DNA from: Sciurus carolinensis
Lineage: Eukaryota; Chordata; Mammalia; Rodentia; Sciuridae
Direction of reading: 5' to 3'
Assembly: GCF_902686445.1 (NCBI RefSeq)
Contig: NC_062213.1
Location: 5,701,241-5,765,240 of the forward strand
Length of the DNA stretch: 64,000 nucleotides
A program made the translations under genes and the position numbers. Position 1 is the stretch's first letter; each line of letters starts with the position of its first letter. Below are positions 5,233-51,835 of this stretch, in pieces. The notes below the pieces were generated by a model. That model saw only the letters and a list, made by a program, of their open reading frames with translations, was not told where the DNA came from and ran no database searches.

Positions 5233-5323
5233 GGGGCTGGGGAGATAGCTCACTCGGTAGAGTGCTTGCCTTGCAAGCACAAGGCCCTGGGTTCGATCCC
5301 CAGCACTCCCCCCCCCAAAAAAA
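5233..5323 (+). repeat. ID SINE, young, with intact Pol III boxes
   Basis: This is a full tRNA-derived ID element: 'ggggctggggagatagctca' start, A-box region at about 5245-5260, canonical B box 'ggttcgatccc' at 5290-5300, then a C-run and an A tail. It is flanked by a 12-bp direct repeat, 'agtagatgttca', at 5221-5232 and 5325-5336, the signature of L1-driven insertion. The intact B box and perfect flanks suggest recent insertion. The tRNA-like fold belongs to the SINE; this is not a functional tRNA gene. Confidence 0.9.
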
Positions 5324-41164: not shown

Positions 41165-41560
41165 GAGCAAGTGTCAGATTCTTGGCAGGATCCAAGGTCA
41201 ACAACTTCAATGGTGGAAGTGTCTACTCCTGAGGAGAAGGAAGTGACCCCAGTGTCTGAGGCCAACATCAGGTGGAATTTCCAGAGTATGGGCCCTGCCT
41301 GCCTGGTGGAGCTGAGACAGCTCGTCTCACCTCTGGTGGTCAGAGCACAAGTTACACCATCAGCTCCCCTGGGTCTCAGGGTCTTCAGATTTGCACTAAA
41401 TTATACCACTGGCTCTCCTGACTTCCTCAGCCTCCATATGCATGTGAGCCAGTCATCATTGTAAAAGCCTCTATCAGTGAATAAATAGATTGATGGTTGA
41501 TTGATTGATAGGTAGCCCACTGGTTCTGTTTTTCTAGAAAATCCTGATAAGTGGCTAATC
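41165..41560 (+). mobile_element. Old MaLR-like LTR
   Basis: The order 'tggctctcctgacttcctca', 'gcctccatatgcatgtgagc', 'aataaatagattgatggttg', 'ctggttctgtttttctagaa', 'aatcctgataagtgg' matches an old LTR ending in the 'ctggagaaccctgactaa' terminus. The TA-like tract has become a GATT/GATG repeat. Confidence 0.55.
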
Positions 41561-41572
41561 AGAATATCCTGC

Positions 41573-41733
41573 TTCCTCCCTTCTTCCCTCCCTCCCTCCC
41601 TTCCTTCCTTCCTCCCTTCTTCCCTCCCTCCCTCCCTTCCTTCCTTCCTCCCTTCTTCCCTCCCTCCCTCCCTTCCTTCCTTCCTCCCTTCTTCCCTCCC
41701 TCCCTCCCTCTCTTCCTTCCTTCCTTCCTTCCT
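41573..41733 (+). repeat. Pyrimidine minisatellite, period 36
   Basis: About four copies of a 36-bp C/T-only unit built from CCTT, CCCT and CTTC words (for example 'cctcccttcttccctccctc' followed by the CCCT/CCTT tail). Almost no purine occurs on the plus strand over 160 bp. The PPSLPSFLPPFF repeat protein of the open frame at 41551-41766 is a translation of this repeat, not a gene. Confidence 0.95.
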
Positions 41734-47494: not shown

Positions 47495-47541
47495 TTGGGT
47501 TAGGGATAGGGTTAGGGTTAGGGTTAGGGTTAGGGTTGGGG
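47495..47541 (+). repeat. Interstitial telomeric repeat (TTAGGG)n
   Basis: Four contiguous perfect TTAGGG units at 47512-47535, a fifth at 47500-47505, an ATAGGG variant at 47506-47511 and degenerate TTGGG-type units at each edge. The G-rich strand is the plus strand. Flanks are ordinary unique DNA with no subtelomeric features, so it is internal. Confidence 0.95.
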
Positions 47542-49270: not shown

Positions 49271-50843
49271 TAATAGTTGAATTTTTCCAATTTAAAGAAA
49301 ATTTAATGACTTTTGGAATTTTTAAGGGAAGTAAATATTCTGGTTATGCTTATGATGGCAATAATTGTACCTACTTATTTCAGTGGCTTTGCATCTCAGT
49401 TCCAACATTTCTGTTTGGCTCTTATTTATTTATCCTAGGACTGAAATTGCTGTTCCTTGCTATGTCTTTCAGAACTCAAAGTGTACTTTTTGAAGCTCTT
49501 TTAGGCCCAGCCCAGGAGTGCTAGGGGAGCAGCCATGTCCTGGGGTGCATTTGGGAGTTCATGTGCTGTGGGACACTGGCACCCAGGAAAGTGGCAAGGC
49601 ATTGTGCTCCTGCCTCATGCCCTGGTCCCAGGCCGTCGGTCCCAGGGCTTCGCCCGCTGCACCGTGCCGCCCTGCTGCTCAGGCCCAGGGTCCGCGTTGG
49701 TGTGCTGTGGAGGGCCGCTGCCCTTGGCGTGCTCTTCAGGTGCAACTGAAGTGAAGCTCCTGACCCTGAGACACACAGAAGCGCATCCGAGCTACTGGGC
49801 AACTGATATCAGGCCTGTTCATCGATGTGAATGTCCTGCATGGCTGTTTTCTGTCACTGCAGCCTGAGGCCTGACCCCGTGCAGGCTCCCAGGCCCTGTT
49901 CCCTGTGTGCCACAGGGCTGCACTGTCCCTCGCTACTCACCCCTGGGAGTTTCTGCACCACAGACAACCCAGTCAGATTCTCTTTATTTAAGTGCTTCAT
50001 GTCCTTAAACACAGAGAAATGGCTAATTTTGCACTGAAACAGGATTATGAATTCTGTTCGGCATCTTGACTAAAAGCCTGCATTCCTTTTCTGTGGCTTC
50101 CTGCTGACCTTTCTCATCTCTACCAGGTATCTGTGACCTTTTCTGGGTTTCAAGGTTAAGCACCACTGCTTCTTACTCCCTGGCATTGTGTTTTATACTC
50201 AAGAGTTGCTTTATTTCTCAGAGTCTCCATTTACACTTGGAAGCCAGAGATCTGTGATTTATTTGTTTTGCATTGTCATGATTTTTGAAAAGAGTGTGAA
50301 ATGCTGGTTAATATGACGTGTTGACTAAACGCTATACGGTTGTGGTGTGACTGGTCACTGTGTGCACGGAGGCGTTAAAAGAAGCCCCTTACTTAAGGCT
50401 GAGTGTGAGCGCTGCAATTAGCCAACTCCACCACAGAACAACTTCAGGGTGCTGCTCAGCTGCCCCATCCTCAGATCCTCATATTTAACATGTAGGTGGG
50501 TCACCCTGGGTCCTTGGGTCACACTGAGCATCAAATGGGATGATTTGCGTGAAGCACACCACCCTGCAGGAAGAACTCAAAGTAAGAAAACAAAAACAGG
50601 AACAACGAAAGCTAGGTGGCAATTTTACTCTCAACATTTGCGTTTTCCAGTCATAACACCTTGCTGAAGCCATCTCTAGACGGGGGGACTCATTCACCTC
50701 AAAGGGTGTCACAGAGCAACCTGGAATCCTGCAAATGGAAAGCTTTGTGAGCTAGAAAGTTCAGTTTCCTTGCAGGGAAGTTCATACGGGCTGCCCTCTG
50801 CTCGTGAGAAGAGTTCAGTTATAAGGTCACCCCCCCCCTTAGG
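49271..50843. other. Unassigned noncoding DNA
   Basis: A GC- and CpG-richer block at 49500-49760 has overlapping frames in several phases on both strands and no recognisable product. The 3' part (50400-50843) just precedes the LTR and may contain the left end of the neighbouring MLT1-like LTR (C-run at 50830-50838). Confidence 0.4.
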
Positions 50844-50904
50844 TGTCAGCATGGCGCTGTCCAAGCTTCTCTTCATGATTTTAATCCTCATAACTTCTTC
50901 CCAC

Positions 50905-51074
50905 AACTGCGCCCAATCGGCGCTCAACACCCAACCCAGACCCCTAGCAACAAGGCTCACCCAATTACCGACATTCTCCCGCCGCTGTGAACTCGCACCC
51001 AATTGGCGTTGGACACCTGACCCAGACCCTAGCAACAAGACTCACCCAATCAACCATCGCCCCGCCCCCCAGCA
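50905..51074 (+). repeat. 85-bp imperfect duplication in the LTR U3
   Basis: Text starting 'aactgcgcccaatcggcgct' at 50905 recurs at 50990 as 'aactcgcacccaattggcgt'. Both continue through an 'acccagacc(c)ctagcaacaag' word and 'ctcacccaat'. The second copy leads directly into the 40-bp array. Confidence 0.85.
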
Positions 51075-51300
51075 ACAAGGCTCTCCCAATCAACCATCGC
51101 CCCGCCCCCCAGCAACGAGGCTCTCCCAATCAACCATTGCCCCGCCCCCAGCAACAAGGCTCTCCCAATCAACCATCGCCCCGCCCCCCAGCAACAAGGC
51201 TCTCCCAATCAACCATCGCCCCGCCCCCCAGCAACAAGGCTCACCCAATCAACCATCGCCCCGCCCCCCAGCAACAAGGCTCTCCCAATCAACTCTCACC
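51039..51300 (+). repeat. 40-bp NF-Y/Sp1 minisatellite within the LTR
   Basis: Six full units at 51039-51078, 51079-51118, 51119-51157 (39 bp), 51158-51197, 51198-51237 and 51238-51277, plus a partial seventh. Each unit carries 'cccaatcaaccatcg' (CCAAT box), 'ccccgccccc' (GC box) and 'agcaacaagg'. Differences between units are single bases, so the array is homogeneous. Units of 40 bp shift reading frame, which explains two open frames through it and argues against coding. Confidence 0.95.
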
Positions 51301-51340
51301 CCCTTTCATGCCCCAACCAATCAGGCTCTTCCCGGCCCTG

Positions 51341-51350
51341 TATAAGCATG
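51341..51350 (+). promoter_or_regulatory. TATA-like box of the LTR
   Basis: 'tataagcatg' lies 24 bp downstream of the last CCAAT box, with AATAAA at 51362-51367 just beyond. By normal spacing, transcription would start near 51365-51375. The start site is inferred. Confidence 0.55.
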
Positions 51351-51429
51351 TGCATTTTTAAAATAAAACAGAACTTCTCCGGTGATTTGCTTTGGACTGT
51401 GGCTCCGTGTGCTTGTTTCAACAGTGAGG

Positions 51430-51835
51430 TCCTAACGCACCCCCACCCCAGGGCCTCAGAATTTGGAGAGGGTCCTTACACAGGAATTCAGGTTAAACCA
51501 GATCACTAGAGTAGGCTCCCATTCAATACTACTGGTGTCCTGATACAGAGAGAAAAGCCAACACGGGAACAGAGGTCACAGAGGGAAGACTCTGCGAAGG
51601 AACAGGGAGAGGGTGATCAGGTATGGATGAAGCCAGGTTGGACATGGTCCAACTACAGGCCAGCAGTACTTGAGGCCACCAGAAGGGGACATCTGCATGG
51701 CCTTCAGAGGGAGCACGACCCCTTCTCATACCTGGATCTCACTCTGACCTCAAAACTGAGGTGTTACTTTGCTATTGTTCTAGGTCACTTGGTCTGTGGT
51801 GCCTTGTAATGGCGGCCTTAGGAACCTGAGAAAGA
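51430..51835 (+). mobile_element. MLT1-like MaLR LTR
   Basis: 'ggcctcagaatttggagagg', 'gtccttacacaggaattcag', 'ctactggtgtcctgatacag' and 'ggtctgtggtgccttgtaat' follow MLT1 order. 'ggtcctaacgcacccccacc' at its start matches the MLT1 5' phrase 'gtcctaacccccag', which suggests the preceding CCAAT LTR inserted into this older LTR. Confidence 0.6.

What the first reader, a model, noticed from the sequence alone, without database searches (positions are those of the whole stretch)
50844..51423. LTR-like promoter with eleven same-strand CCAAT boxes and six GC boxes in 40-bp tandem units
Seen: eleven CCAAT words, all on the plus strand, six identical-type GC boxes, then TATA and AATAAA in promoter order. 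Known: NF-Y binds CCAAT, Sp1 binds GC boxes, and the human ERV9/LTR12 family carries a U3 enhancer of tandem roughly 40-bp CCAAT-bearing units that acts as a strong, sometimes long-range promoter. Inferred: this is an independent rodent counterpart that could drive transcription of flanking DNA. 'agcaacaagg' in each unit also resembles an RFX half-site.
Basis: partly seen in the sequence, partly recalled or inferred. Interest (0 to 1): 0.78.

Follow-up and report, generated by a model that had tools for sequence, protein, structure and literature searches.

The report
Rodent LTR with repeated CCAAT/GC-box units
This looks like a leftover control segment (solo LTR) of an ancient retrovirus in a probable rodent genome, with seven near-identical 40-base units that each carry a CCAAT word, six of them also a GC box; the layout resembles ones known from a human and a pig retrovirus, built from a different mix of words.

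Summary
In 50844-51423 there are 11 CCAAT words on the plus strand (plus one minus-strand CCAAT inside CCAATTGG at 50999-51006), six GC boxes, TATAA at 51341 and AATAAA at 51362. A 40-bp array (51027-51293, 6.7 copies) holds seven CCAATs and all six GC boxes; elsewhere no 580-bp stretch has more than three CCAATs on one strand. New anatomy: an older duplication of about 86 bp (50905-51070) seems to precede the 40-bp amplification; AATAAA lies just upstream of the predicted start (~51370), unusual since LTRs usually have it in R. Caution: 10 of 11 CCAATs have C at -1; only the promoter-proximal one (51317) fits NF-Y's RRCCAATSR. Best reading: a solo LTR with a repeat enhancer laid out like ERV9/LTR12 or PERV. 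The decisive test, other copies in the same genome, could not be made: the genome search answered none of 15 identical requests. The target-site duplication is 4 of 6 at best. Transcription and binding are untested. New variant of a known kind, moderate interest.

The parts
50844..51423 (+). Putative solo LTR, TGT...ACA
Evidence: By eye, no stretch like a tRNA primer-binding site follows 51423 and no purine tract precedes 50844; neither was searched by a tool.
50905..50990 (+). Older module 1 (86 bp) with two CCAATs (50913, 50961)
   Evidence: Aligns to module 2 over most of its length, poorly at the 3' end.
50991..51070 (+). Older module 2 with CCAATs at 50999 and 51046; its 3' half is the first 40-bp unit
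   Evidence: the 35-nt core is 80% identical.
51027..51293 (+). 40-bp tandem array, 6.7 copies; seven CCAATs, six GC boxes, seven AGCAAC
   Evidence: TRF; units; counts.
51059..51267 (-). Six Sp1-type GC boxes (10-mers at 51059, 51099, 51139, 51178, 51218, 51258)
   Evidence: consensus recalled.
51317..51321 (+). Promoter-proximal CCAAT (aaCCAATca), the only one of 11 fitting RRCCAATSR
   Evidence: consensus from PMC11802806.
51341..51345 (+). TATA box
51362..51367 (+). AATAAA poly(A) signal
51370..51370 (+). Predicted transcription start, 29 nt from the TATA box
   Evidence: Inference from spacing; not measured.
51378..51421 (+). GT-rich tract downstream of AATAAA (R/U5)
   Evidence: 70% G+T over 44 bases.
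50838..50843 (+). Possible decayed target-site duplication, left (CTTAGG)
   Evidence: 4 of 6 with GTGAGG; chance of 4 or more is 4.4%.
51424..51429 (+). Possible decayed target-site duplication, right (GTGAGG)

Best explanation
A solo LTR of an endogenous retrovirus in a probable rodent genome. Its U3 enhancer grew in two steps: a module of about 86 bp holding two CCAATs was duplicated, then the CCAAT/GC-box half of the second copy amplified to seven 40-bp units (the similarity is shown; the order is inferred). Inferred mechanism: Sp1/KLF factors on the six GC boxes, with NF-Y on the proximal CCAAT and perhaps on the array, keep the segment open and load Pol II at the TATA box, starting at about 51370 and reading rightwards into flanking DNA. 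Because AATAAA lies upstream of that start, transcripts made here would lack the signal, while plus-strand transcripts arriving from the left would meet it and could be polyadenylated near 51380-51395.
For: Order of modules fits the general LTR model (TG, TATA, AATAAA, CT/GT-rich, CA; PMC2664473, passages). Array and motifs. The composite core with a GT-rich tract appears in 1 of 200 shuffled windows. Two CpG columns of the units are intact in 11 of 12 places and CpG observed/expected is 0.67 against 0.25 for the window, which fits a young or recently homogenised array or one unmethylated in the germ line. Precedents for the layout: LTR12 and PERV.
Against: No second copy outside the element in the window and the whole-genome search did not complete. 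The target-site duplication at these ends is 4 of 6; five other end pairs pass a stricter rule, but 138 of 200 control placements in the same window give as many or more. AATAAA falls before the predicted start, whereas LTRs usually have it in R. No Pfam retroviral match in the 10 frames scanned of 25 listed; shorter frames were not scanned. 10 of 11 CCAATs have C at -1. A third CpG column has CG in only 1 of 6 units, which could mean CpG loss in the other five.
Confidence: 0.72

Rival explanations
1. An LTR, but its array is mainly a GC-box (Sp1/KLF) enhancer; the CCAATs in the units are carried along by tandem copying and bind NF-Y weakly or not at all, except the proximal one at 51317. (Compatible with the LTR reading; it changes the mechanism.)
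For: 10 of 11 CCAATs are preceded by C, against RRCCAATSR; six GC boxes match a recalled Sp1 10-mer in full.
Against: 8 of those 10 fit SR on the 3' side, and all seven units keep CCAATCA exactly.
Confidence: 0.35
2. A host promoter (of a gene or non-coding RNA) in which a minisatellite expanded; not an LTR.
For: TATA, CCAAT and GC boxes with raised CpG are also ordinary promoter parts; no convincing target-site duplication and no second copy was found.
Against: AATAAA and a GT-rich tract directly after the TATA box fit an LTR better than a host promoter (recalled); TGT...ACA ends frame it.
Confidence: 0.15
3. An inert GC-rich minisatellite that happens to lie near TATA- and AATAAA-like words.
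For: 22 of 200 shuffled windows hold a CCAAT-TATAA-AATAAA composite by chance.
Against: Only 1 of 200 when the GT-rich tract is required; the older modules and the proximal CCAAT lie outside the 40-bp array in the same orientation.
Confidence: 0.08

Closest known systems
ERV9 / LTR12 (human) U3 enhancer
   Same: About 41-nt tandem units (5-17 copies) with conserved CCAAT, a relatively short R, and an AATAAAA motif near the start site (PMC11853044, passages); a proximal predicted NF-Y site near the TATA box in 91% of 22 LTR12s (PMC5085097, passages). AATAAAA also occurs once here.
   Different: LTR12 units carry GATA and GTGGGGA words; neither GATA nor GTGGGGA occurs on either strand of this element. 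These units carry a GC box and AGCAAC. LTR12 has 72-bp U5 repeats; here no tandem repeat follows the array and R/U5 is about 54 bp. A separate TATAA is present; the proximal CCAAT is 24 nt from it (start to start) against 37 in LTR12.
PERV-A/B and PERV-C LTRs (pig)
   Same: 39-bp or 37-bp U3 tandem repeats acting as an enhancer and varying in number (PMC4036542; PMC5932395, passages); an NF-Y-binding CCAAT box in PERV LTRs (PMC10968565, passages). That the CCAAT lies inside the repeat is recalled.
   Different: PERV-A/B units are 18 + 21 bp subrepeats; no such subdivision here. No letters of PERV were compared.
Betaretrovirus-like LTRs
   Same: Long open frames in U3 are common, and AATAAA can act as TATA in HML2 (PMC2664473, passages).
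   Different: The class of this LTR was not determined; the long open frames here follow from a unit without plus-strand stop words.

Membership tests
Retroviral (solo) LTR | TG...CA termini | tested here: met
Retroviral (solo) LTR | TATA, AATAAA and GT-rich tract in LTR order | tested here: met
   but AATAAA lies before the predicted start, not in R.
Retroviral (solo) LTR | 4-6 bp target-site duplication | tested here: inconclusive
   4 of 6 at these ends; five other TG/CA pairs pass, fewer than the control mean of 6.5.
Retroviral (solo) LTR | Dispersed copies in the genome | not testable with these tools
   The genome search unanswered in all 15 requests; none elsewhere in the window.
ERV9/LTR12 | About 41-nt U3 units, 5-17 copies, with CCAAT | tested here: met
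   40 nt, 6.7 copies, seven CCAATs.
ERV9/LTR12 | GATA and GTGGGGA words in the units | tested here: not met
   Zero of either on both strands of the element.
ERV9/LTR12 | 72-bp U5 repeats | tested here: not met
   No tandem repeat of score 50 or more between 51293 and 53783.
ERV9/LTR12 | Sequence homology to LTR12 | not tested
   No LTR12 sequence was fetched.
PERV LTR | 39-bp unit of 18 + 21 bp subrepeats | tested here: not met
   No such sub-period: at shifts of 17-22 at most half of the letters match (10 of 22 at 18, 9 of 18 at 22); none in TRF.

The most novel reading that the evidence does not exclude
A further, separate retroviral lineage (beside ERV9 in primates and, by recall of where its CCAAT lies, PERV in pigs) that arrived at a CCAAT-bearing tandem unit of about 40 bp, here fused with a GC box per unit, and that has stayed unmethylated and active in the rodent germ line, giving a natural test of why this unit length recurs.
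Probability: 0.25. Interest if true: 0.6.

Novelty: new variant of a known kind. Interest (0 to 1): 0.38.

Why it matters
If copies exist with different unit numbers, the family would let one test whether the roughly 40-bp CCAAT unit is a recurrent solution for retroviral enhancers, and whether unit number relates to activity (for PERV the reports are mixed). It would also be a candidate source of new promoters in rodent genomes.

Tried and rejected
Whole-genome copy search: the same genome search was sent 15 times, none answered; by its description that tool holds prokaryote species, so this genome may not be held at all. IMG/VR scans: an 18-mer of the R/U5 gave one contig (L001) with no other match better than E 0.16, taken as chance; a 24-mer of the unit gave none. 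Phage and plasmid BLAST: no match. Target-site search over other TG/CA pairs: five pairs, against a mean of 6.5 in 200 control placements. Pfam on 10 of the 25 open frames listed: two matches, both far below cut-off. The open frame 50851-51342: no homologue at E 0.001 among 198 candidates, 8 insignificant PDB matches, E 0.3-0.8; I do not take it for a gene, because the unit has no plus-strand stop word and three frames run open through it. The bacterial promoter scan does not apply here. Papers: all 10 searches used, listings with abstract starts only; none listed appears to describe this element, but searches listed only 25 of 303, 15 of 42 and 12 of 115. Passages of PMC3144453 were seen and not used.

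Full report
Observation. Eleven CCAAT words lie on the plus strand between 50913 and 51317; a twelfth, on the minus strand, overlaps the one at 50999 (CCAATTGG). Elsewhere in the window no 580-bp stretch has more than three CCAATs on one strand. Tandem Repeats Finder reports 6.7 copies of a 40-bp unit at 51027-51293 with score 485. All six GC boxes are inside that array.

Anatomy. The array has seven units starting with AGCAAC (51031, 51071, 51111, 51150, 51190, 51230, 51270); one is 39 bp, and the last lacks the GC box. Upstream, 50905-50990 and 50991-51070 are diverged copies of one module of about 86 bp, each with two CCAATs; their 3' ends align poorly. The 40-bp unit is the second half of module 2, so I infer that the module duplication came first and the 40-bp amplification later. 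Over the first 34 columns the six complete units differ pairwise by 0 to 4 bases. Two CpG columns are intact in 11 of 12 places; a third column has CG in 1 of 6 units, either a gain or five losses. CpG observed/expected is 0.67 against 0.25 in the window. The array may be young, recently homogenised, or unmethylated in the germ line; these cannot be told apart here.

Core promoter. CCAAT 51317, TATAA 51341, AATAAA 51362, then a GT-rich tract (70% G+T) and ACA at 51423. A start 29 nt from the TATA box falls at 51370, after AATAAA. So AATAAA would be in U3, R would be some 10-25 nt (inferred), and a transcript from this LTR would not carry the signal at its start. PMC2664473 (passages) says the signal usually lies in R, so this is a departure from the common plan; exogenous retroviruses with the signal in U3 and a short R are known (recalled). 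The combination of CCAAT, TATAA, AATAAA and a GT-rich tract occurs once in the window and in 1 of 200 shuffled windows; without the GT-rich tract, in 22 of 200. Both rules were set after seeing the site.

Which factors. NF-Y's site is RRCCAATSR (PMC11802806, passages). Only the CCAAT at 51317 fits in full; the other 10 have C at -1, while 9 of 11 fit SR on the 3' side. 'Eleven NF-Y sites' is therefore too strong: one good site and a run of off-consensus ones. The GC boxes match a recalled Sp1 consensus in full. AGCAAC is at most an RFX half-site (recalled).

Is it an LTR? For: the module order, the ends, and the repeat-enhancer design. Against or missing: a target-site duplication of 4 of 6 (4.4% by chance); other end pairs no better than control (5 against a mean of 6.5); no copy elsewhere in the window; no retroviral Pfam match in 10 of the 25 listed frames, shorter frames unscanned; and no genome-wide search, because the tool did not complete. 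By eye nothing like a primer-binding site or purine tract flanks it, so if it is an LTR it is probably solo. The window is probably from a rodent: a tRNA-like stretch at 5239-5311 looks like the ID SINE family (recalled). Sciurid was not tested.

Comparison. Human LTR12: units of about 41 nt, 5-17 copies, CCAAT bound by NF-Y, GATA and MZF1 words, AATAAAA about 30 nt before the start (PMC11853044, passages); between 19% and 70% of LTR12s are bound by NF-Y in three cell lines (PMC5085097, passages). Pig PERV: 39-bp and 37-bp repeats whose number changes with passage, with mixed reports on whether more copies mean more activity (PMC4036542 and PMC5932395, passages). The present element resembles these in layout but fails the GATA/GTGGGGA and U5-repeat tests for LTR12 and the subrepeat test for PERV, so it is not filed as either.

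Verdict. Real feature, probably a solo LTR with a repeat enhancer, of a known kind with a distinct unit. Function is inferred only.

Noticed in passing
window 5239-5311 (+): tRNA-like stretch (Rfam tRNA, 36.7 bits) followed by a C run and an A run; looks like a rodent ID SINE (recalled). ARAGORN reports no tRNA gene.
   Followed up: partly
window 47497-47541: Interstitial telomere-type repeat, 7.5 copies of GGGTTA.
   Followed up: no
window 50851-51345 (+): Open frame of 164 codons starting 7 bases inside the LTR with a hydrophobic, signal-peptide-like start (judged by eye); no homologue found. Openness through the array follows from the unit's composition.
   Followed up: partly
window 41572-41732: 36-bp CT-rich tandem repeat, 4.4 copies, 96% matches; its surroundings have the strongest negative GC skew of the window (-0.53).
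   Followed up: no
window 50751-51500: Strong strand asymmetry over the element, GC skew about -0.43 (C-rich plus strand), second only to the repeat near 41500.
   Followed up: partly
window 1-64000: CCAAT is rarer over the whole window than in dinucleotide shuffles: 106 against a mean of 190.
   Followed up: no
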